The position numbers were made by a program, and so were the translations under genes. Below are positions 18,990 through 28,973 of a DNA stretch of 64,000 nucleotides, piece after piece; the first letter of the stretch is position 1, and each line of letters starts with the position of its first letter. This DNA comes from Erythrobacter sp. BLCC-B19 (GTDB taxonomy: Bacteria > Pseudomonadota > Alphaproteobacteria > Sphingomonadales > Sphingomonadaceae), in contig NZ_CP117516.1 of assembly GCF_028621955.1 (NCBI RefSeq), positions 434,001 to 498,000 of the forward strand, written 5' to 3'. The notes beneath the pieces were generated by a model. That model saw only the letters and a program-made list of their open reading frames with translations, ran no database searches and was not told where the DNA came from.

Positions 18990-21131
18990 TCAGCCGCGCA
19001 TCCAACCGTGATAGCGCTCGACCCAGCGCAGCAGGCCTTCGGGCTTGTGCGCCTTCTTCCAGTTGCCCGCGGCAAACTTGTTGGCCTCCACCATCGTGGG
19101 ATAGGCGTGGATCGTGCCGAGGATCTTGTTGAGGCCCAGCCCGTGCTTCATCGCCAGCACATATTCGGCGAGCAATTCGCCCGCACCCGCGCCCACAATG
19201 GTCACGCCCAGCACCGTGTCCTTGCCGCCTGCCGGGGTGAGGATCTTGACGAAGCCCTTGGTCTCGCTCTCGGCGATCGCGCGGTCGAGATCGTCGAGGT
19301 CATAGCGGGTGACTTCGACCGCGATGCCCTGCTCTGCCGCCTCGCGCTCGTTAAGGCCGACGCGCGCGACTTCGGGATCGAGGAAGGTGACGGCGGGGAT
19401 CACGCGGTAATCGGCCTTGAACTTGCGGAAGGTGCCGAACAGCGCGTTGACGCTCGCATACCACGCCTGATGGCTGGCGGTGTGGGTGAACTGATACGGC
19501 CCGGCGACATCGCCTGCGGCAAAGATATTGGGGAACTTGGTGGCGAGGAATTCGTCGGTCACCACGGTCTTGGCCGTGTCCACGCCCAAATCTTCCAGCC
19601 CGAAGCCCGTCAGCCGCGCCTTGCGGCCCACCGCCACGATCAGCGCGTCAAAGGGCACGCGCACCTCCTGCCCGCCAGCCTCGGCAATCAGCGTGCGGTC
19701 TTCGATCCGCAGCGCCTTGTGCCCCGTCAGCACCCGCACGCCCGATTCTTCGAGCGCCGCCCGCGCGAGCGCGCTGACATCGTCGTCCTCGCGCGCCAGC
19801 ACCCGCGCGCCGCGCTCGATCTGCGTGACCTCACTGCCGAGCCGCGCAAAGGCCTGCGACAATTCGCACCCGATCGGCCCGCCGCCCAGCACCGCAATCC
19901 GGCGCGGGGCTTCGTCCATCTGCGCGAAGGTGGTCCACAGCGTCTCGCTGGTGACATAGCCGCTGGCCTCGATCCCCGGAATGTCGGGCACCACCGGCTC
20001 TGCGCCCGACGCGATCACGATGGAGCGCGTCGTCAGCCGCTGGGTGCCGCCATCATTGCGGGCGATTTCGACCGTCCAGGGGTCGATGATCCGCGCATAG
20101 CCCTCGACCACATCGACGCCGAGGCCGGTGTAGCGTTCGACGCTGTCGTGCGGCTCGATGGTCTTGATCGCCTCCAGCACCCGCGCCATCACCGCCTTGA
20201 GCGGCACTTGCGGAGCGGTGGCGGCAAGGCCATACTTGTCGGCATGGCGCATCTGGTGCGCGATCTTGGCGCTCTTGATGATCGCCTTGGACGGCACGCA
20301 GCCGGTGTTGAGGCAATCGCCGCCCATCTGATGCGCCTCGACCAGCGTCACCTTGGCCTTCACCGTCGCCGCGATCAGCGCCGAGACCAGCCCCGCCGAG
20401 CCTGCGCCGATCACCACCATGTTGCGATCGAACTTTGCGGGCCGCTTGAACCCGGCATAGACCCGGCGGCGCTTGATTACCCCGATGATGCCCTTGGCGA
20501 TCCACGGCACGATGCCGAGCGCCACGAAGCTGCCGATCAGCGTGGGCGACAGCAGCCCGCTGGTGCTTTCGATCCGGGCAAGCTGCGTGCCCGCATTCAC
20601 ATAGGCCGCCGTTCCCAGCAGCATCCCCAACTGGCTGACCCACACGAAGGTCAGCGTGCGGATGCGGGTGAGGCCCATCACCAGATTGACCATGAAGAAC
20701 GGGAAGGCCGGGATCATCCGCAAGCTGAACAGATAGAACGCCCCGTCACGCTCAAGCCCGGCGTTGATCGCCTTCAGCCGCTCGCCGAACCGCGCCTCGA
20801 TGCTGTCGCGCAGCACATAGCGCGAGGACAGGAAGGCCAGGGTCGCGCCGATGGTCGAGGCGAAGGAGACGATTACAGTCCCCCACAGCACCCCGAACAG
20901 CGCGCCTGCCGCCAGCGTCAGGATCGCAGCGCCCGGCAGCGATGCGCCGGTGACCGCGACATAGATCGCAAAGAACCCCGCCGCCACCGCCAGCGGATTG
21001 TCCTGCTGGATCGCGGCAGCCTGCGCAGCGACCGCCTTGATCCCCGCAATCGAGAGATATTGGCCCAGGCCAAGCGCAAAATAGGCGATGACCAGCGCGG
21101 CCAGAACGGCGATGATGGCGAGCTTTTTCAC
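18990..21131 (-). CDS. TVP38/TMEM64 membrane domain fused to a mercuric-reductase-like flavoprotein
   Basis: A 713-residue fusion. About residues 1-225 form a TVP38/TMEM64 (SNARE-associated, DedA-like) domain with several helices and the LPGAAILTLAAGALFG and RMIPAFPFFMVN blocks. From about residue 235 a pyridine nucleotide-disulphide reductase follows: FAD GAGSAG at 242-247, redox disulphide Cys273/Cys278 (GGDCLNTGCVPS), an NAD motif GGGPIGCE, and a C-terminal catalytic His-Glu pair in HAYPTMVE. The substrate is unknown; mercuric ion is not implied because the extra cysteine pair of MerA is not seen. I prefer a GTG start at 21131, with GGGATCGGGA upstream; ATG at 21161 is the alternative. It lies in an operon with another FAD enzyme. 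Confidence 0.87.
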   Translation of the reverse strand: MKKLAIIAVLAALVIAYFALGLGQYLSIAGIKAVAAQAAAIQQDNPLAVAAGFFAIYVAVTGASLPGAAILTLAAGALFGVLWGTVIVSFASTIGATLAFLSSRYVLRDSIEARFGERLKAINAGLERDGAFYLFSLRMIPAFPFFMVNLVMGLTRIRTLTFVWVSQLGMLLGTAAYVNAGTQLARIESTSGLLSPTLIGSFVALGIVPWIAKGIIGVIKRRRVYAGFKRPAKFDRNMVVIGAGSAGLVSALIAATVKAKVTLVEAHQMGGDCLNTGCVPSKAIIKSAKIAHQMRHADKYGLAATAPQVPLKAVMARVLEAIKTIEPHDSVERYTGLGVDVVEGYARIIDPWTVEIARNDGGTQRLTTRSIVIASGAEPVVPDIPGIEASGYVTSETLWTTFAQMDEAPRRIAVLGGGPIGCELSQAFARLGSEVTQIERGARVLAREDDDVSALARAALEESGVRVLTGHKALRIEDRTLIAEAGGQEVRVPFDALIVAVGRKARLTGFGLEDLGVDTAKTVVTDEFLATKFPNIFAAGDVAGPYQFTHTASHQAWYASVNALFGTFRKFKADYRVIPAVTFLDPEVARVGLNEREAAEQGIAVEVTRYDLDDLDRAIAESETKGFVKILTPAGGKDTVLGVTIVGAGAGELLAEYVLAMKHGLGLNKILGTIHAYPTMVEANKFAAGNWKKAHKPEGLLRWVERYHGWMRG

Positions 21132-21182
21132 GAGCAGTCCCGATCCCTTTTGGCAGGCCATTCGCCCCGGCACGGCGGCTGG

Positions 21183-22319
21183 TTACACTGTGCCTGTGAC
21201 AGCAGCGTATTGCGCAATCCAGCCTTTGTCGATCCGATGCTTGAGGGCAAGCACCCATGCCCCTTGCGCTGCGAGCGGGCCATAGCTGAGGATTGCAGAG
21301 CCATCGCCGGTGTTGAGCAGGTAAAGGCTGTGGCGGCGCGGGCGATAGGCACGCGCGGGGGCGCGGCCTGTCAGCACGCTGCGCAGGTTCGCAGCGAGCA
21401 CCGGCCCCGTCATCACCGCATGAACGCCCGCATGGGCGAGCGGGCGATCGCGGCGGGCAGCGACGTCGCCGACCGCGAAGATATGCGGGTGGGAGAGCGA
21501 TTGCTGGCGCGCATCGACGGCGATGAAGCCGTCAGGATCGACCGCCAGTCCGCTTGCCCGCGCCCATTGCGGCGCTGCGCTGCCGATTGCGGCGATGATG
21601 GCATCGGCAGGTTCGAGGCTCTGCCCGCCCGCCATCAACGCGCCATGCGCGAAGCGGGCTGGCCCCGCTATCTGGACAATGCCCTGCCGCACAAGCGCTG
21701 CCGCCGCGCGGCGCTGGACGCTGGCGGCAAAGCCGGGGAGCAGCCCGCCCGTGCCCGTCACCAGCCTGACGTCGGGCCGCACCGCTGCGCCGGCAAGGTT
21801 GCGAAGGGCGAAGGCCAGCTCCACGCCTGCCGCTCCGCCGCCGACCACGACCACACGGGCAAGCCCCGCACGCCGGGCCGCGACCTGATCGACAAAGGCG
21901 CCGATCGGGCGCACGTCGATGAGGCGCGGGTCATCCCCCAGCACCGCGGCGGCGCGCCCGATCCCGCCGGTATCGACACTGGCATGGTCGAAAGCGATCC
22001 GCGCGCCGCTGGCGGTCGTCACCACCCGCGCCTCGGGATCGAGCGCAGCGCAGCGGTCGGCGATCAAGGTCACATCGGCACGGGCGGCGAGCGCTGCCAG
22101 ATCGACCCGCCCTTCTCGCGGGCCGTGCTGCCCTGCCAGCCAGCCGGGCACCATTCCGGAATAGCGCAGGTGCCGGTCAGGAGTGAGCAGCAGCGTGCGC
22201 ACCCCCGGCGGCGGCCCTGCCCTTGCCCAGTCGGCCAGCACCGCAACATGGGCGTGCCCGCCGCCGACCAGCAGCAGCGTTCGGGTGTCGGTTGCATTTT
22301 CTGCGCTGCGCGGTGCCAT
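21183..22319 (-). CDS. FAD-dependent NADH-dehydrogenase-like oxidoreductase
   Basis: A 378-residue protein with an N-terminal dinucleotide-binding motif LLVGGGHAHV, a second one, VVVGGGAAGVELA, in the middle, and the terminal FAD block HPHIFAVGDVAARRDRP. The GGHAHV start resembles the flavoprotein domain that precedes SelD in some organisms and type II NADH dehydrogenases. No SelD domain is attached. The electron acceptor is unknown. It is the first gene of the minus-strand operon with the TVP38-reductase fusion, nucleoside transporter and phosphatidyltransferase. The 271-base gap upstream contains an inverted pair TTGCA/TGCAA near 22504-22518 but no clear promoter. Confidence 0.85.
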   Translation of the reverse strand: MAPRSAENATDTRTLLLVGGGHAHVAVLADWARAGPPPGVRTLLLTPDRHLRYSGMVPGWLAGQHGPREGRVDLAALAARADVTLIADRCAALDPEARVVTTASGARIAFDHASVDTGGIGRAAAVLGDDPRLIDVRPIGAFVDQVAARRAGLARVVVVGGGAAGVELAFALRNLAGAAVRPDVRLVTGTGGLLPGFAASVQRRAAAALVRQGIVQIAGPARFAHGALMAGGQSLEPADAIIAAIGSAAPQWARASGLAVDPDGFIAVDARQQSLSHPHIFAVGDVAARRDRPLAHAGVHAVMTGPVLAANLRSVLTGRAPARAYRPRRHSLYLLNTGDGSAILSYGPLAAQGAWVLALKHRIDKGWIAQYAAVTGTV

Positions 22320-22590: not shown

Positions 22591-24318
22591 ATGGCAGGCG
22601 AAGGCCAGAGTTACGGGTCGCAGATCAGCCTCGTGAAATTCTTCAGGATTTTCTTCGACATCCTGAAGCCCGAGGCGAATTTCTACTGGCTCGCGGCGGT
22701 CTATGGCATCGGCATCAGCCTGCTTTCGCTGGCGACACCGATTTCGGTGCAGATGCTGATCAACACCATCGCCAACACCGCACTCACCGCGCCGCTGGTG
22801 GTGCTGGCGCTGACATTGTTCGGCCTCCTGTTCATCTCCAGCATGATCTACGCCTTGCGCGTCCACCTCATGGAGCTGTTCGCCCGCCGTTTCTACGCGC
22901 GCATGGTGGCCGAGATTTCGCTGATCGCGGTCTATGCCCAGAACCCTTTCTTCTCCGACGCCAAGAAGGGCGCGCTGTTCAACCGCTATTTCGATGTGGT
23001 CTATGTCCAGACCGCAATCCCGATCCTGTTCATCGGCGGCTTTACCGTGCTGTTGCAGATCGCGGTCGGGTTCGTGCTGGTGAGCCTCTATCACCCCTAT
23101 TTCCTCGGCTTCACGCTGGTGATGATCGCGCTGATCTGGGTGGTCTGGCTGGCATGGGGCAGCCGCGCGCTGCGCACCGGGGTCGACCTCAGCCATGCCA
23201 AGCACGCGACGGCGGCGTGGCTGGATACGCTCGGCAGCTCGAACGGCTTCTTCAAGTCGCAGCGCCGGATCGACTACGCGCTCGACAAGACCGACGATTA
23301 CACCGCCTCCTACATCAAGGATCGCAAGCGGCACTTCCGCCACCTGTTCTCGCAGACCATCGCCTTCCTGCTGATGTATGCTGCCGCCAGCGCGGCGCTG
23401 CTGGGGCTGGGCGGGTGGCTGGTGATCCAGAACCAGCTGACGCTGGGCCAGCTGGTCGCGGCCGAGCTGGTGCTGTCGGCCGCCTTTGCCGGGGTTGCGC
23501 AGCTCGGCAGCTACCTCGGCTATTTCTACGACTTGTTCGCCGCGGTCGAGGAAATCTCGCAGTTCTACGATGTCGAGCAGGAACAGCCCAAGGGCGCCGA
23601 TCCCTTCGACGGGCCGGATCACACCATCGTGATGAAGGGCGTGCGTGGGCGCGCCCGGCACGAGGAGGTGCAGTTCGATCTCGAAATCCCGAGCGGCTCG
23701 ATCATCATGGCCGCCGCCAGCCAGCACGGCATCCAGCGATTGTTCACCAACCTGCTGAAGCTCCATGTCTTGCCCGAAGGCGGGATCGCGACGCTGGGCG
23801 GCATCGACATGAAGGCGATCGAGCCGCACCACCTGCGCAAGAATGTCCACGTGCTCGACCGCCCGAGCACGGTGGAAATGACGATCCGCGAATATCTCGC
23901 CCTGTCCTGCCCCGACACTGCCCCGCAGCGGATGATCGGCGCGCTGGAAACGGTTGGCCTTGCCGACATGATCGCCACGCTCGACAAGGGTCTCGACACC
24001 CCGCTCGCCTCGACCGGCTATCCGCTCTCGGCGGTCGAATTGCAGCAGCTGAAGCTCGCCAATGCGCTGCTCGAACGCCCGCGCATTCTGGTGCTCAGCC
24101 GCCTGTTCGACCTGCTCGATCCCGAACCCATCGCCCGCGCGGTCAACGAACTGCGCGCGCAGGCCTATACGACCGTGATCTACTTCTCCAACCGCCGCAC
24201 CGATCTGGGCTTCGACCGCTTCCTCTATCTTGAGGCCAGCCGCCAGCGCGTGTTCACCAACTTCGACCAGTTCGCCGCCGCCACTGCCGGCCGCCTGCTC
24301 ACCACGGGAGGCGAATGA
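22591..24318 (+). CDS. ABC exporter-like protein with a degenerate ATPase domain
   Basis: A 575-residue protein. Residues about 1-310 form a type I ABC exporter membrane domain with six helices. Residues about 330-560 align in order with an ABC ATPase domain, but every functional motif is lost. The Walker A position reads AAASQHGIQR, the signature LSGGQ reads LSAVELQQ, Walker B reads ILVLSRLFDLLD without the catalytic acidic residue, and the switch histidine region reads YFSNRR. ATP hydrolysis is therefore unlikely. I chose the ATG at 22591 with GGAAAGG upstream. The stop overlaps the HlyD-like gene (ATGA) and a TolC-like gene follows, giving a complete type-I-secretion-like set with an inactive motor. 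Confidence 0.88.
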   Translation: MAGEGQSYGSQISLVKFFRIFFDILKPEANFYWLAAVYGIGISLLSLATPISVQMLINTIANTALTAPLVVLALTLFGLLFISSMIYALRVHLMELFARRFYARMVAEISLIAVYAQNPFFSDAKKGALFNRYFDVVYVQTAIPILFIGGFTVLLQIAVGFVLVSLYHPYFLGFTLVMIALIWVVWLAWGSRALRTGVDLSHAKHATAAWLDTLGSSNGFFKSQRRIDYALDKTDDYTASYIKDRKRHFRHLFSQTIAFLLMYAAASAALLGLGGWLVIQNQLTLGQLVAAELVLSAAFAGVAQLGSYLGYFYDLFAAVEEISQFYDVEQEQPKGADPFDGPDHTIVMKGVRGRARHEEVQFDLEIPSGSIIMAAASQHGIQRLFTNLLKLHVLPEGGIATLGGIDMKAIEPHHLRKNVHVLDRPSTVEMTIREYLALSCPDTAPQRMIGALETVGLADMIATLDKGLDTPLASTGYPLSAVELQQLKLANALLERPRILVLSRLFDLLDPEPIARAVNELRAQAYTTVIYFSNRRTDLGFDRFLYLEASRQRVFTNFDQFAAATAGRLLTTGGE

Positions 24319-25376
24319 TCATGGCAACGCGCAAGGAAGACATGGCGCATTTCACCACGCTGGCGTCGATCAAGACGCCGCGGGTGATGCGGGCGGTGTT
24401 CGTGATGCTGCTGGCCGCGATCGTCATCGCGGTTGCCTTTCTGCTCTATGTGCCCTGGGTGCAGACCACCTCGGGCCGGGGCGTGGTGACGACATTGAGC
24501 CCGAACGAGCGGCGGCAGGATATCAACGCGCTGGTGCCGGGCCGGATCGAGGAATGGTATGTCCGCGATGGCTCTTCGGTGAAGAAGGGCGATCCCATCG
24601 TCCGCATCGCCGACATCGACCCCAATCTGCTCGATCGCCTGCGCGCCGAACGCGCGCAGATGGAACTGCAACTGGCTGCCGCCCAGTCCGCGCTCGCCAC
24701 CGCCCAGATTGACGAACGCCGCAGCCGCGAACTGTTCGAGGCGGGGCTCGCTGCAAGGCGCGATTACGAGCTGGCGCAGATCAAGGTCGCCGATATGCAG
24801 GGCAAGGTCGCCGCCGCGCAGGCCGATTTGAACCGCGCCGATGTCAACATCGCGCGCCAGTCCGAACAGATCGTGCGCGCCCCGCGCGATGGCTTCATCC
24901 AGAGCCTCAATGCCGGCGATGCCGCGACCTTCATCAAGGCCGGCGATGTGCTGGCGACCTTCGTGCCCGACGGGGCCGAGCGCGTGATCGAAATCTTCAT
25001 CGACGGGCGCGATGTCGCGCTGGTGCGACCGGGCGACAAGGCCCGCATCCAGTTCGAAGGCTGGCCCGCGGTGCAGTTTTCCGGCTGGCCCTCGGTCGCG
25101 GTCGGCACCTTCGGCGGCAAGGTCATCGCGGTCGACCAGTCGGCGCAGGTCAATGGCCGCTTCCGCGTGCTGATCGCCGAGGAAAAGCTCGACGGCTATG
25201 GCTGGCCGGAAGAACGCTACGTCCGCTTTGGCGCGGTGGTGCAGGCCTGGGTGCTGCTGGAGACGGTGCCGGTCGGCTACGAGATCTGGCGTCAGCTCAA
25301 CAACTTCCCGCCCGAACTTCCCGCGCCTTCCAGCACGGCCAGCGCCAGCGGCAGCAGCAGCGGATCGGCCAACTGA
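24315..25376 (+). CDS. HlyD-family periplasmic adaptor protein
   Basis: A 353-residue membrane fusion protein. One N-terminal transmembrane helix (about 24-46) is followed by a biotinyl-lipoyl-like half (LVPGRIEEWYVRDGSSVKKGDPI), a coiled-coil hairpin (about 95-180, rich in Ala/Glu/Arg), the returning lipoyl half (IVRAPRDGFIQSLNAGD) and a beta-barrel domain. Such adaptors link an inner-membrane exporter to a TolC channel. It starts inside the exporter stop codon, and the TolC-like gene starts 2 bases after its stop. A Ser/Ala/Gly-rich tail ends the protein. Confidence 0.9.
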   Translation: MIMATRKEDMAHFTTLASIKTPRVMRAVFVMLLAAIVIAVAFLLYVPWVQTTSGRGVVTTLSPNERRQDINALVPGRIEEWYVRDGSSVKKGDPIVRIADIDPNLLDRLRAERAQMELQLAAAQSALATAQIDERRSRELFEAGLAARRDYELAQIKVADMQGKVAAAQADLNRADVNIARQSEQIVRAPRDGFIQSLNAGDAATFIKAGDVLATFVPDGAERVIEIFIDGRDVALVRPGDKARIQFEGWPAVQFSGWPSVAVGTFGGKVIAVDQSAQVNGRFRVLIAEEKLDGYGWPEERYVRFGAVVQAWVLLETVPVGYEIWRQLNNFPPELPAPSSTASASGSSSGSAN

Positions 25377-25378
25377 CG

Positions 25379-26875
25379 ATGCGCCGAAGTCCTGCCTTGC
25401 GGCGGCCGGGCGCCCTGCTCGCCGCCTGCGCCCTGCTGGCGCTGACGCTGGCGAGCGGCGCGCCCGCGGTCGCGCAGAATATCGAGCCGGTGGGAGACCC
25501 GCTCGACGTGGCGCTCACCACCGGGCCGCTGCTGCCTGAAGAAGTGCTGCGCTCCTCGGCCCTCACCTTCCCGCAGGTGCTCGAAGCCTTCGAACGCGAG
25601 GCCGCCGCCCGCGCCGACCAGCTCGGCGCCGACGGCGCCTTCGACCTGATGCTCAAGGGCGAATATTATGATCGCCTGACCGGTTACTATTCGGGCGGGT
25701 TCGGCAAGGTCGAAGCGCGCCAGCCGCTGATGCCCTTTGGCGCGGAAGTGTTCGGCTCCTACCGCGTCTCCTCGGGCGACTTCCCGACTTACGAGAACTA
25801 CAACTACACCAACGCGCTGGGCGAGGTGAAGGTCGGCGCGCTGTTCTCGCTGCTGCGCAACCGCGACATCGACAGCCGCCGCTTCGCGCTCGAGGACACG
25901 CGCCTTGCCGCATCGCAGGCCCAGCTCGATGTGCTGCTGGTGCAATTGAACGTCCAGCACGAAGCGCTGCGCGCCTATTGGCGCTGGGTCGCGGCGGGCG
26001 AGGAAATCCGGGTGTTCGAGGAACTGCTCGAAATCGCCGAAGCGCGCCAGATCGGCCTCACCCGCGAGGTGAACGAAGGCGCGCGCGCACGCATCGCGCT
26101 GACCGAGAACGAGCAGAACCTGCTCGCCCGCCGCTCGCTGCTGGAAGAGGCCAAGCGCAACTTCACCACCGCCGCCAATTCGCTGGGGTTCTATATCCGT
26201 GGGTCGGACGGGCGGATGATCGTGCCGACCCGTGAAATGCTGCCCGACATGGCGCGCTTCCGCGAGATTTCCCCGGCGGACAAGCTCGCCGCGCTGCCGC
26301 TCAGCGAGATGATCCAGAACCGGCCCGAACTCCAGACCTTCAAACTCGCGCTCGAACGCGCGACCAACAAGGTCGCCTTGCGCGAAAACGACCTCAAGCC
26401 ATCGCTCAACGCCTCGGTCGAGCTGTCGCGCGATTTTGGCCAGATCGGCCCCGGCGGCCCGGGGTTCGATTCGACCGATACGGTGGTGGGCCTGACCTTT
26501 TCGGTCCCGCTCCAGCGCCGCACCGCGCGCGGTGCCTTGCAGCGCGCCGAGGCCGAGCTGCGCGAGACCGAACTGCGCCAGCGCCGGATCGCCGACCAGA
26601 TCACCACCGATGTCGGCAACATCCTTGCCAACCTGTCGGCCGCGCTGCGCCTTGCCGACCTTGCCGATGCCGAGGTCAAGCAGGCCAATGCGATGGTGCA
26701 GGCCGAACGCACCCGGTTCCGGCTGGGGGCGGGCGACTTCTTCTTCGTCAACCAGCGCGAGGAAACCGCCGCCAACGCCCAGATCAAGGCGATCCGCGCC
26801 GAGCTTGCCGGCCGGCTGGCCGAAGCAAGCTACAACGCGGCCACGATGAACCTTACTGCGCTGGGGCTGGAGTAG
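25379..26875 (+). CDS. TolC-family outer-membrane channel protein
   Basis: A 498-residue protein with a signal peptide (about 1-34, ending PAVAQ) and two long helical repeats typical of outer-membrane efflux proteins. Recognisable blocks are LRAYWRWVAAGEEIRVFEELLEIAEARQ in the first half and VGLTFSVPLQRRTARGALQRAEAELRE in the second. With the HlyD-like adaptor and the exporter-like protein it forms a tripartite system. The last 23 bases overlap the convergent gene at 26853. Confidence 0.9.
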   Translation: MRRSPALRRPGALLAACALLALTLASGAPAVAQNIEPVGDPLDVALTTGPLLPEEVLRSSALTFPQVLEAFEREAAARADQLGADGAFDLMLKGEYYDRLTGYYSGGFGKVEARQPLMPFGAEVFGSYRVSSGDFPTYENYNYTNALGEVKVGALFSLLRNRDIDSRRFALEDTRLAASQAQLDVLLVQLNVQHEALRAYWRWVAAGEEIRVFEELLEIAEARQIGLTREVNEGARARIALTENEQNLLARRSLLEEAKRNFTTAANSLGFYIRGSDGRMIVPTREMLPDMARFREISPADKLAALPLSEMIQNRPELQTFKLALERATNKVALRENDLKPSLNASVELSRDFGQIGPGGPGFDSTDTVVGLTFSVPLQRRTARGALQRAEAELRETELRQRRIADQITTDVGNILANLSAALRLADLADAEVKQANAMVQAERTRFRLGAGDFFFVNQREETAANAQIKAIRAELAGRLAEASYNAATMNLTALGLE

Positions 26876-27842
26876 GCGCAGCCGCGGCGGCGGCGGCAGC
26901 AGCCTCCGCCTCGGCCTTGGCCCGCGCCTCTTCCTGTGCCAACCGCGCGGCCTCGGCTTCGGCCTTGGCCTTGGCTTCCGCCTCGGCCAGCCCGACGAGA
27001 TCAATCGGCACGTCGCGGTTATAGGCCAGCACCCCCGGCACCGGCGGGATCCGCCCGACCAGCGCGTTGAGGAAATTGTTGCGTTTGCCCGCCGCGCGCA
27101 GATCGGCCTTCACGACCGTGTATTTGGCAAGGCTCTCCGGCGTGCTCCAGTCGGTCGGCACGGCGGGGCGATCGGGCATCAGCTCGCGCTGGAAGGTCGA
27201 AGCTTCCAGCGCCTTGCGATCCGCCCAGCCGAGGCTGAGGAAATCGCCGAGCGAGGTGATCTGCCCCGGTTTGGCCTCGAACTTGACCGAGCCCATGCAA
27301 TAGCACTGCCCCCCGGTCGCGGCGCCGGGCAGATAGAGGATCGGGCCGAACCACGTATATTCGCCCGGCTCGACCTCGATGAGATAGGAGAAGCTCTTGG
27401 CGGGCGCCTCGGTCTTGTCGAACACGAATTGCGGGCCGAAGGGCACGATCATGCGCAGGTCGATATCCGCGATGGCGAAGTTTTCCTCGGTCGGCTCGAC
27501 CGGCTTGTTCTTGAGCGGGCGGCCGGTCTGCTTGGAGGCGTTGTAGGTCGCCAGCTTCTTGGGATAGTCCTCCTTGGCCTCCTCGAATTCCTCGCGCCAC
27601 TTGGCCTCGTAATTGGCGATTTCCGCGGCATTGGGCGTCTTCAGGAACACGCCATAGGTGCGGTTCTGGGGGCTCTTGATGTAGATATAGGCCTTGGCCG
27701 GATCGATCTTGGCCTTGCCCGAGGCAAGGTTCTTCAATTCGATCGCCTTGTATTCGGCGACATCGGGCTTGAGCTTTTCCGCCGCCGCGGGGGTCGCCGC
27801 CAGCGCCAGCGCGCCTGCGATCAGGGTGATGATGCGCTTCAT
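26853..27842 (-). CDS. Exported protein of unknown function with Ala/Glu-rich C-terminus
   Basis: A 329-residue protein with a signal peptide (about 1-21, ending TPAAA). The central region holds an extended domain with IYIKSPQNRTYGVFLKT and a Cys-x-Cys pair (GQCYCMGSV). Residues about 275-329 are almost pure Ala/Glu/Lys/Arg and should form a long helix ending in an Ala-Pro tail. I do not recognise the family. It is coupled to the upstream gene by an ATGA overlap, and its 3' end overlaps the tolC-like gene on the other strand. Convergence with the secretion-like operon is suggestive, but a functional link is not shown. Confidence 0.75.
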   Translation of the reverse strand: MKRIITLIAGALALAATPAAAEKLKPDVAEYKAIELKNLASGKAKIDPAKAYIYIKSPQNRTYGVFLKTPNAAEIANYEAKWREEFEEAKEDYPKKLATYNASKQTGRPLKNKPVEPTEENFAIADIDLRMIVPFGPQFVFDKTEAPAKSFSYLIEVEPGEYTWFGPILYLPGAATGGQCYCMGSVKFEAKPGQITSLGDFLSLGWADRKALEASTFQRELMPDRPAVPTDWSTPESLAKYTVVKADLRAAGKRNNFLNALVGRIPPVPGVLAYNRDVPIDLVGLAEAEAKAKAEAEAARLAQEEARAKAEAEAAAAAAAAAPTPAPAQ

Positions 27843-28435
27843 GGTTCGAGCACCTCCAGCTTGGGCTTGGGGCCGGAGGCGACGCGCGCCTGCTTCATCA
27901 GCGCGGCCTCCCGATCCTTGGCGTTTTCGCGGCTGAGGCCTTCTTCGAAATGGAACGCCTGCCACAGCTCCTTTTCCAGGCCGTAGCGGTCATAACCCTT
28001 GTAGAACATACAGTTGCGCAGGTTGATCCGCTTGATCCGGCGACGTTCGGCGCTGCCGAAGATCGCGTCGGCCATCAGCCCGCCAATCGCCCCGCCGATC
28101 CCGCCGGCGAGCACGCCGTACTGGCTCATCGCCGAACTGATCGCGGCGCTATCGGCGCCCATGTAGAAGTTGATCCCGCTCGCGAGCGAATCGCATTCGG
28201 TGATGTCGAAATAGGCCTGATCGAAGCTGGTATCGGCGCGGTGGAAGAAGAAATACTTGTCGAAATCCGCCGCGATCGTGGGATCGGGGGTGTAGGCCAG
28301 ATCGGGCATCGCCACCGCTTCGATCTCGGCAGCAGTGAACACCTTCATCGGCGGTTCGGTCTTGATCGCCTGCGCGCCTGCTACCGATGGCACTGCCGCC
28401 ATCAGCGCAAGCGCTGCATAATGCAGCAACTTCAT
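27839..28435 (-). CDS. Exported protein of unknown function with glycine-zipper segment
   Basis: A 198-residue protein with a signal peptide (about 1-22, ending AGAQA). It has a hydrophobic glycine-zipper-like stretch near residues 108-127 (VLAGGIGGAIGGLMADAIFG) and a C-terminal charged helix. Glycine zippers of this kind insert in membranes or oligomerise. I do not recognise the family. ATG 28435 is the natural start, giving a clean signal peptide. The gene is first in a two-gene unit with the protein at 26853. Confidence 0.75.
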   Translation of the reverse strand: MKLLHYAALALMAAVPSVAGAQAIKTEPPMKVFTAAEIEAVAMPDLAYTPDPTIAADFDKYFFFHRADTSFDQAYFDITECDSLASGINFYMGADSAAISSAMSQYGVLAGGIGGAIGGLMADAIFGSAERRRIKRINLRNCMFYKGYDRYGLEKELWQAFHFEEGLSRENAKDREAALMKQARVASGPKPKLEVLEP

Positions 28436-28517
28436 GGTAAATGCGCCCCTCTCGTTTGACCCTGAGCGGCAACCTGACAGAGCCATTTGCACGCTGCAAG
28501 CGGGAATTTTCCCGCGC

Positions 28518-28973
28518 CTAGATCCTGCCCCTGAGCGCCTGATAGGCCGCCGCCGACACGGTGTTGGCAAGGTTCAGCGAACGGATCACCTCGCTGCGCA
28601 TCGGCAGCTTGAACAGGCGCCCTTCATGCCGCGCGAGGATCGCTTGCGGGATGCCCTTGGTCTCCTGCCCGAACACCAGAAAGGCGTCCTCCGGGTAATC
28701 GGGCTCGTAGAATGACCGCGCGCCGAACTCCTCGAACAGGAACACCTGATCCTCCCGCGGCGCGCGGGCGGCCAGGAATGCGTCCCAGCTGGCATATTCG
28801 GCGAGGCGCACGTGCGGCCAGTAATCGAGGCCCGAGCGCTTCACCCGCTTGTCCGAGATCTCGAAGCCGAGCGGGTGGATCAGGATCAGCTCCATGTCGA
28901 GCGCCACGCAGGTGCGCCCCACCGCCCCGGTGTTGCCGGGAATTTCGGGCTGGACGAGGACGATTGCGGTCAT
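28518..28973 (-). CDS. trmL: tRNA (cytidine(34)-2'-O)-methyltransferase
   Basis: A 151-residue SPOUT-class methyltransferase, the usual size for TrmL. It begins IVLVQPEIPGNTGAVGRTC, has HPLGF and the knot-forming C-terminal blocks LVFGQETKGIP and PMRSEVIRSLNLANTVS. It methylates the ribose of the wobble base in tRNA-Leu isoacceptors, using S-adenosylmethionine. It is the last gene of the long minus-strand array, 28 bases after the AraC regulator. Confidence 0.95.
   Translation of the reverse strand: MTAIVLVQPEIPGNTGAVGRTCVALDMELILIHPLGFEISDKRVKRSGLDYWPHVRLAEYASWDAFLAARAPREDQVFLFEEFGARSFYEPDYPEDAFLVFGQETKGIPQAILARHEGRLFKLPMRSEVIRSLNLANTVSAAAYQALRGRI

What the first reader, a model, noticed from the sequence alone, without database searches (positions are those of the whole stretch)
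22591..26875. Type-I-secretion-like operon whose ABC motor has lost all ATPase motifs
The exporter-like protein keeps the six-helix membrane domain and the full-length ATPase fold in order. Walker A, the signature, the Walker B acidic residue and the switch histidine are all replaced (AAASQHGIQR, LSAVELQQ, ILVLSRLF, YFSNRR). It remains coupled by ATGA to an HlyD-like adaptor and then a TolC-like channel, so it is maintained rather than decaying. Either another ATPase powers it, it uses a different energy source, or it is a structural or regulatory trans-envelope complex. This is my leading candidate for an undescribed system.
Basis: partly seen in the sequence, partly recalled or inferred. Interest (0 to 1): 0.85.

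Follow-up and report, generated by a model that had tools for sequence, protein, structure and literature searches.

The report
Exporter that lost its ATP engine
A three-part bacterial envelope exporter is built on an ABC-pump protein whose ATP-burning site has been replaced in every close relative examined, so it probably works by some other means, and relatives that kept parts of the site still exist for comparison.

Summary
ORF 22591-24318 has an ABC-exporter fold (AF2 pLDDT 83; Foldseek top hits TmrAB, HlyB/D, PCAT1) with A-loop, Walker A, Q-loop, LSGGQ, Walker B and H-loop replaced. It is no local pseudogene: all 73 locus proteins and the 120 best database hits (own copy included in each) lack the Walker A Lys, Q-loop Gln and Walker B Asp, and NBD dN/dS (0.16) is close to that of membrane domain, adaptor and channel (0.14-0.17). 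Pseudo-ABC and adaptor occur in the same 46 of 100 genomes; the three genes are adjacent in 36 of 39 loci read. A membrane-domain tree puts it in one clade, apart from canonical exporters, with relatives that keep part of the site. In that clade the membrane domain, not the NBD, is the better conserved; a TM6 glutamate (E292) is universal in the sets examined; adaptor hairpins are 46 residues shorter per arm where the site is largely gone. Best explanation: an ATP-independent tripartite exporter, probably ion-gradient driven as SbmA is. Energy source, substrate and oligomeric state are inferred, not shown. Paper searches listed no such system.

The parts
22591..24318 (+). Pseudo-ABC exporter, 575 aa: six-helix membrane domain (about residues 14-326) plus a complete NBD fold (about 338-565) with every nucleotide motif replaced
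23464..23466 (+). Codon for E292 in TM6, a glutamate found in 360 of 360 listed database hits (own copy included) and 27 of 27 sampled rows of the all-lost clade, absent from 24 of 24 canonical exporters
23710..23739 (+). Former Walker A (AAASQHGIQR, residues 374-383); modelled as a strand to residue 376 followed by a helix from 379
24025..24048 (+). Former LSGGQ signature (LSAVELQQ, residues 479-486); Gln replaced by E483
24085..24108 (+). Former Walker B (ILVLSRLF, residues 499-506); Asp-Glu replaced by S503-R504
24181..24198 (+). Former switch histidine region (YFSNRR, residues 531-536); His replaced by N534
24315..25376 (+). HlyD/MacA-type periplasmic adaptor, 353 aa (start possibly 24321), with a short alpha-hairpin (helices 105-142 and 148-183)
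25379..26875 (+). TolC-like outer membrane factor (OEP), 498 aa

Best explanation
This is a conserved, self-contained three-gene trans-envelope exporter whose inner-membrane part is an ABC exporter that lost its nucleotide site. The pseudo-ABC is presumed to form a homodimer. The NBD fold is kept as a scaffold: at the two sides of the former ATP sandwich a basic residue (R383, old Walker A Ser) and an acidic one (E483, old signature Gln) could pair across the dimer in place of ATP (inferred). Transport is done by the membrane domain, presumably by alternating access driven by the proton or another ion gradient, as in SbmA, with the TM6 glutamate E292 the candidate ion site (inferred). A short adaptor and a TolC-like channel pass the substrate to the outside. 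LysR neighbours in several lineages, plasmid carriage and the short adaptor point to small-molecule efflux rather than protein secretion (inferred). Shown: motif loss and its spread, purifying selection, gene linkage, predicted fold, graded relatives, no associated partner exporter. Inferred: homodimer, energy source, substrate.
For: Motif loss in 57 of 57 distinct proteins at 39-100% identity (own copy included) and, by column, in 73 and 120. Several replacements are conserved widely: in the 73, Q382 65, R383 64, D423 63, E483 72; S503 (46), R504 (43) and N534 (53) less so. dN/dS medians over 210 pairs of 21 genomes: membrane domain 0.138, NBD 0.162, adaptor 0.163, channel 0.170; NBD/membrane ratio 1.16. 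Pseudo-ABC and adaptor in the same 46 of 100 genomes, own included. Three genes adjacent in 36 of 39 loci read. Membrane-domain tree: 47 atypical rows apart from 24 canonical (100/100); all-lost 26 rows one group (98/99). NBD is the better conserved half in 260 of 276 canonical pairs but in 0 of 351, 0 of 105 and 0 of 210 pairs of three subgroups of the clade. E292 in 68 of 68 sampled clade rows, 0 of 24 canonical. R or K at 383 with E at 483 in 68 of 73. Hairpin shorter by 46+46 residues in 27 of 30 adaptors; long in the three from partly intact relatives. LysR neighbours. Precedent: SbmA, proton-driven and proposed to derive from ABC exporters that lost the NBD (PMC13316013, abstract and passages).
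Against: No transport, binding or energy data. E292 is equally universal in relatives that still have Walker A, Asp, Glu and His, so it predates the loss and is not specific evidence for ion coupling. It is not at the LmrA E314 position: that residue lies 74 before the Walker A Lys (numbers), E292 lies 90 before. SbmA uses a ladder of several glutamates; here I see one conserved acidic residue that looks membrane-embedded. The inverted conservation also holds in relatives with a mostly intact site, and inside one canonical subfamily the NBD leads in only 33 of 45 pairs. The R383/E483 idea rests on columns that may have changed only once each, and on no dimer model; five of 73 do not fit. The window operon itself has no adjacent LysR seen.
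Confidence: 0.5

Rival explanations
1. The trio is a passive, gated or structural/regulatory conduit: the pseudo-ABC anchors adaptor and channel, or senses something, without active transport.
For: No energy-coupling motif was recognised in the three proteins by Pfam or NCBIfam beyond the degenerate ABC match; pseudoenzymes often take such roles (general knowledge).
Against: The membrane domain is the better-conserved half of the clade, and the exporter fold with a TolC-like exit is kept, which suggests substrate passage.
Confidence: 0.25
2. It is the degenerate half of a heterodimer whose other half is an intact ABC exporter encoded elsewhere.
For: Heterodimeric exporters with one degenerate site are well known (PMC7756269, passages). 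The genome holds two other PF00664 proteins, L003 and L002. Over all 100 genomes L002-like matches are somewhat commoner with the operon (16 of 46 against 10 of 54, p=0.072).
Against: Within the genus L002-like (over 440 bits) is present in 16 of 38 genomes with and 10 of 23 without the operon (p=1); L003 in 37 of 38 and 23 of 23, so nearly universal; an LssB-like exporter in 4 of 38 and 3 of 23. No intact exporter beside the operon in the 39 loci read; the only convincing ABC neighbour is a 222-aa ATPase that looks like FtsE. In the review passages seen, the one Walker A change described is Lys to Arg (ABCG5/G8), far milder than here.
Confidence: 0.12
3. The NBD still binds a nucleotide or another ligand in a non-canonical way and remains a switch.
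For: Several replaced positions are conserved and the NBD is under purifying selection close to the other parts.
Against: Walker A Lys and Ser, the A-loop aromatic, Walker B Asp and Q-loop Gln are all gone; the model runs the former P-loop into a helix (the modelling alignment also held partly intact relatives).
Confidence: 0.1
4. It is a decaying pseudogene or a sequencing artefact.
For: All catalytic motifs are lost; one metagenome bin (L057/L075) has the gene in two frames.
Against: Open frames and the same loss in dozens of genomes, dN/dS about 0.14-0.17.
Confidence: 0.01

Closest known systems
Type I secretion ABC exporters / PCAT family (HlyB, LssB-type, PCAT1)
   Same: Same exporter fold and adaptor-channel operon logic; best NCBIfam hits are TIGR01846 (HlyB) and TIGR03375 (LssB); HlyB/D and PCAT1 are Foldseek ranks 2 and 3
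   Different: Scores far below those models' cut-offs (95 vs 726 and 89 vs 693 bits); no ATP motifs; no N-terminal C39-like domain; short adaptor hairpin; no substrate gene seen
ABC exporters with one degenerate site (TmrAB, TM287/288, BmrCD and others)
   Same: Loss of catalytic residues in an NBD that keeps its fold
   Different: Those keep one working site; here the whole motif set is lost and no associated partner exporter was found
SbmA / SLiPT transporters
   Same: ABC-exporter-like membrane domain without ATP use; proposed to descend from full ABC exporters (PMC13316013, abstract and passages)
   Different: SbmA lost the NBD and coupling helices, has TM0 and a ladder of glutamates, and imports; here the NBD fold is kept, one membrane glutamate is evident, and adaptor and channel imply export
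LmrA and its NBD-less form LmrA-MD
   Same: Ion-coupled transport by an ABC membrane domain, with an essential TM6 glutamate (PMC6155054, passages)
   Different: LmrA has a working NBD; its E314 is not the E292 position
MacAB-TolC / AcrAB-TolC / EmrAB-TolC tripartite pumps
   Same: Adaptor model is closest to MacA, AcrA and EmrA; same three-layer design
   Different: Inner-membrane component belongs to a different family

Membership tests
Type I secretion ABC exporter (HlyB/LssB/PCAT) | ABC exporter membrane-domain fold fused to an NBD fold | tested here: met
   (predicted model)
Type I secretion ABC exporter (HlyB/LssB/PCAT) | Intact Walker A, Walker B, LSGGQ, Q-loop and H-loop | tested here: not met
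Type I secretion ABC exporter (HlyB/LssB/PCAT) | Adjacent HlyD-type adaptor and a TolC-type channel | tested here: met
Type I secretion ABC exporter (HlyB/LssB/PCAT) | N-terminal C39 or C39-like domain (HlyB, PCAT) | tested here: not met
   the first modelled membrane helix starts at residue 14; N-terminal extensions are seen in relatives such as L111 and L100
Type I secretion ABC exporter (HlyB/LssB/PCAT) | Scores above NCBIfam TIGR01846 or TIGR03375 cut-off | tested here: not met
   95 and 89 bits against 726 and 693
Type I secretion ABC exporter (HlyB/LssB/PCAT) | Secreted protein substrate encoded nearby | tested here: inconclusive
   no neighbour shared by the distant loci beyond the trio and LysR was noticed; no direct substrate search done
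Exporter with one degenerate site (heterodimer) | Partner half-exporter with a canonical site | tested here: inconclusive
   no linked partner in 39 loci and no association within the genus, but a near-universal partner such as L003 is not excluded
Exporter with one degenerate site (heterodimer) | Degenerate NBD still able to bind ATP (Walker A largely kept) | tested here: not met
   Walker A Lys 0 of 73 and 0 of 120; binding itself not assayed
SbmA/SLiPT | No NBD and no coupling helices | tested here: not met
   NBD fold present, aligned over 235 residues at 2.7 A with the TAP1 NBD
SbmA/SLiPT | Ladder of several membrane glutamates | tested here: not met
   one conserved acidic residue well inside a membrane helix, E292; the others lie at helix ends or extensions by the modelled helix limits
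SbmA/SLiPT | Proton-driven transport | not testable with these tools
   needs transport assays
Tripartite efflux pump adaptor (MacA/AcrA type) | Lipoyl, beta-barrel and alpha-hairpin domains | tested here: met

The most novel reading that the evidence does not exclude
A living evolutionary series in which an ATP-driven tripartite ABC exporter was converted, motif by motif, into an ion-gradient-driven exporter without shedding its NBD: the Q-loop Gln and a signature glycine went first, then the switch His and catalytic Glu, then Walker A and B, while an inter-protomer charge pair (R383/E483) replaced ATP as the glue of the NBD dimer and the adaptor hairpin was trimmed symmetrically by 46 residues per arm.
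Probability: 0.3. Interest if true: 0.9.

Novelty: new variant of a known kind. Interest (0 to 1): 0.72.

Why it matters
ABC exporters are defined by ATP. A conserved, still-tripartite lineage with no ATP site, plus relatives that hold intermediate stages, would make it directly testable how a primary pump can change its energy source, whether the NBD is needed for anything beyond ATP, and whether SbmA-like secondary transporters are a repeated outcome. It also warns annotators: several of these genes are labelled 'ABC transporter ATP-binding protein' in public records.

Tried and rejected
Pseudogene or frameshift: rejected. A linked second ABC exporter: not seen in the 39 loci read (ORFs of 80 aa or more, BLAST with five canonical exporters); the 222-aa ATPase in L146 sits beside a 336-aa ORF and looks like FtsE-FtsX (recall, not tested); long ORFs in L088 and L090 with a roughly 100-residue ABC match look like UvrA (recall, not tested). 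Partner elsewhere in the genome: no association within the genus, p=0.072 for L002 over all 100 genomes. Anti-phage defence: no PADLOC match for the three proteins. Conserved substrate gene: none noticed (ORFs chosen by length, so GC-rich loci are unreliable). Equivalence of E292 with LmrA E314: rejected by spacing. Promoter/terminator scan: nothing above shuffles. A single loss of the whole site is not certain: L112-L116 group with the Walker-A-keeping rows at 84/80, but one clade with the all-lost rows is not rejected (p-AU 0.236), so one or two losses are possible. The motif columns of L099 and L114-L116 are poorly aligned and should not be leaned on. The regex count miscounted 'DE' in many rows (it took a later D-E pair); one search replaces it. 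In one search the 'stem', 'Walker-A-kept' and 'dead' database sets are the 120 best listed hits, not random samples, and each search scored only the candidates sharing most words. The class and phylum scans scored at most 3 first-look candidates per genome, so they can miss members. Nine paper searches listed no description of such a lineage; I saw the top rows of each listing only, and most subscription papers are not in that library.
Full report

THE LOSS IS COMPLETE AND SHARED. In 57 distinct proteins from loci (own copy included), 39-100% identical to the query, none keeps Walker A, the Q-loop Gln, LSGGQ or the Walker B Asp. By alignment column, Walker A Lys is present in 0 of 73 locus proteins and 0 of the 120 best of 2734 database hits, against 26 of 26 canonical exporters; Walker B Asp 0/73, 0/120, 26/26; catalytic Glu 4/73, 0/120, 26/26; H-loop His 2/73, 0/120, 26/26. 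The 73 and the 120 include the window's own copy, and the 73 hold one gene twice (L058/L103). The substitutes are partly conserved: in the 120 closest, Q382 120, R383 119, E483 120, S503 119, R504 118, N534 107, but these are 85-100% identical proteins; in the wider 73, Q382 65, R383 64, D423 63, E483 72, while S503 46, R504 43 and N534 53 vary more.

IT IS MAINTAINED. Over 210 pairs of 21 genomes the median dN/dS is 0.138 (membrane domain), 0.162 (NBD), 0.163 (adaptor) and 0.170 (channel). In 100 genomes (own included) the pseudo-ABC and the adaptor occur in the same 46. In the 39 loci read for context (of those held, chosen for flank length) the order pseudo-ABC, adaptor, channel is found in 36, two of them with the channel cut by a contig end; in three (L148-L150) only the first two are seen (L058 and L154 look like the same contig). 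Copies at 45-50% identity sit on 15 of 72,556 plasmid records (Novosphingobium, Sphingobium, Sphingomonas, Croceicoccus, Sphingopyxis). Of five regions that I opened, four annotate all three genes as transporter parts; in the fifth the adaptor is called biotin/lipoyl-binding protein.

HOW FAR IT REACHES. Besides 46 of 100 close genomes, it is rare in wider samples: 3 of 385 in the class and 11 of 398 in the phylum at E<=1e-45, own genome included in both, 6 of 59 in one family (f195) of another class. In the order of G803, 5 of 100 passed E<=1e-30; two of these, at 109 bits, have canonical motifs. In the class of G803, 19 of 369 genomes passed E<=1e-40 with 21 places; seven places under 155 bits have canonical motifs, so 14 of 369 genomes carry atypical members.

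A GRADED SERIES. A search from an outlying member (L095) listed a group, with Methylobacillus, Nitrosomonas and Methylotenera among the names, in which Walker A Lys is kept in 120 of 120 and Walker B Asp in 113, but the catalytic Glu in only 6 and the switch His in 0 (Arg in 117). A second search (L111 with L100) listed a broader group, with Methylotuvimicrobium, Methylobacter, a Prosthecobacter and an Isosphaeraceae bin among the names, with Walker A Lys in 107, Asp in 119, Glu in 31 and His in 11 of 120. Nine of them keep Walker A, Asp, Glu and His together, all nine without the Q-loop Gln and with only the second signature glycine; another row (P0336) keeps LSGGQ but not the Glu. Both sets are the best-scoring 120 hits, not random samples. 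In a tree of the membrane domain alone (71 rows, 70 different), 24 canonical rows are on one side (100/100) and all 47 atypical rows on the other; within these the 26 all-lost rows are one group (98/99) and the 15 Walker-A-keepers another (99/94). The stem is long (2.74), several rows have long branches, and the tool warned that such joins may be false. Whether the partly decayed L112-L116 share the loss with the all-lost group is open (84/80 for another placement; p-AU 0.236 for a shared clade).

WHAT CHANGED WITH IT. Among mixed canonical exporters the NBD is the better conserved half in 260 of 276 pairs, and in one canonical subfamily in 33 of 45; in the atypical clade it never is (0 of 351, 0 of 105, 0 of 210 pairs in three subgroups). 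As this also holds for relatives with a mostly intact site, weight shifted to the membrane domain before the site was fully lost. Clade hallmarks are E292 and Y313 (68 of 68 sampled clade rows, 0 of 24 canonical each), W210, K204, S201 and Q255. E292 is in all 360 listed database hits. The adaptor's hairpin lacks 46 columns in each arm in 27 of 30 adaptors; those of L095 and L145 (same genome as L111) have them, and that of L152 (same as L100) has about 32 per arm; these three pseudo-ABCs keep part of the site. The short adaptors of L146-L148 belong to partly decayed rows. The window's adaptor models best on MacA, AcrA and EmrA.

WHO POWERS IT. The complete genome has three PF00664 proteins: this one, L003 (Atm1/MsbA-like by recall, matched in 94 of 100 genomes at E<=1e-100) and L002. 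In the genus L002-like (over 440 bits) is in 16 of 38 genomes with the operon and 10 of 23 without (p=1; over all 100 genomes 16 of 46 and 10 of 54, p=0.072); L003 in 37 of 38 and 23 of 23; an LssB-like exporter in 4 of 38 and 3 of 23. No intact exporter lies beside the operon in the loci read. So a dedicated partner of exporter type is unlikely; a near-universal one is not excluded, and other ATPases were not searched for.

HOW IT PROBABLY WORKS (inference). SbmA shows that an ABC-exporter membrane domain can be proton-driven and has been proposed to descend from full ABC exporters (PMC13316013, abstract and passages). LmrA without its NBD was reported as a secondary transporter, with an essential TM6 Glu (PMC6155054, passages), though at another position (74 against 90 residues before the Walker A Lys position). 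I therefore think an ion gradient is the likeliest driver and E292 the first residue to test. R or K at the old Walker A Ser together with E at the old signature Gln occurs in 68 of 73; in canonical dimers these face each other across ATP (established knowledge), so a direct charge pair could close the NBD dimer without ATP. This is a proposal; no dimer was modelled. LysR-type regulators lie beside the operon in several lineages: nine of the 26 loci share such a neighbour, three of these tested and confirmed by Pfam, and two of five plasmid regions annotate one. Together with the short adaptor this favours small-molecule efflux. The window itself has divergent oxidoreductase genes upstream instead.

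RESULTS AGAINST MY READING. E292 predates the loss of ATP motifs. One membrane glutamate is less than the SbmA ladder. Nothing identifies a substrate. A passive or structural role remains possible. Five of 73 do not fit the charge pair.

LITERATURE. Nine paper searches listed no description of a tripartite ABC lineage without ATP motifs; I saw only the top rows of each listing. Read in passages: PMC8277102, PMC7756269, PMC13316013, PMC6155054. Most subscription papers and preprints are outside that library.

Noticed in passing
window 18990-21173, - strand: Fusion of a VTT (DedA-like) membrane domain with a complete pyridine nucleotide-disulphide oxidoreductase; upstream of the operon, with hits in 7 of the other loci compared.
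   Followed up: partly
window 21183-22319, - strand: Stand-alone oxidoreductase closest to TIGR03169 (274.6 bits, below that model's cut-off of 310), divergent from the pseudo-ABC.
   Followed up: no
window 26853-27965 and 27839-28570, - strand: Two hypothetical proteins facing the operon, with no Pfam match at E<=0.1 and no NCBIfam match at E<=0.01.
   Followed up: no
L148, L149, L150: Members with an even more eroded, shorter NBD (513-515 aa proteins), an adaptor but no recognised channel gene within the 13.5 kb read; L148 has 35% GC.
   Followed up: partly
L100 and L111 (L152, L145): Partly intact relatives with an N-terminal extension that looks like a C39-like domain (recall; Pfam gave none for L100; the top database hit for L111 is named peptidase domain-containing ABC transporter).
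   Followed up: partly
L159, 1362-3914: On a Sphingobium plasmid a DUF2309 gene lies directly upstream of the pseudo-ABC, with a carbonic anhydrase gene nearby; DUF2309 is recalled as DabA of inorganic-carbon uptake.
   Followed up: no
L057 / L075 (G014): In one metagenome bin the pseudo-ABC lies in two frames (residues 1-255 and 276-561); could be an assembly error.
   Followed up: no
L002 (G000:C1:769538-771205): Intact single ABC exporter of patchy distribution at high score, next to a 435-aa ORF that looks like a nucleotidyltransferase of peptide-product clusters (recall).
   Followed up: partly
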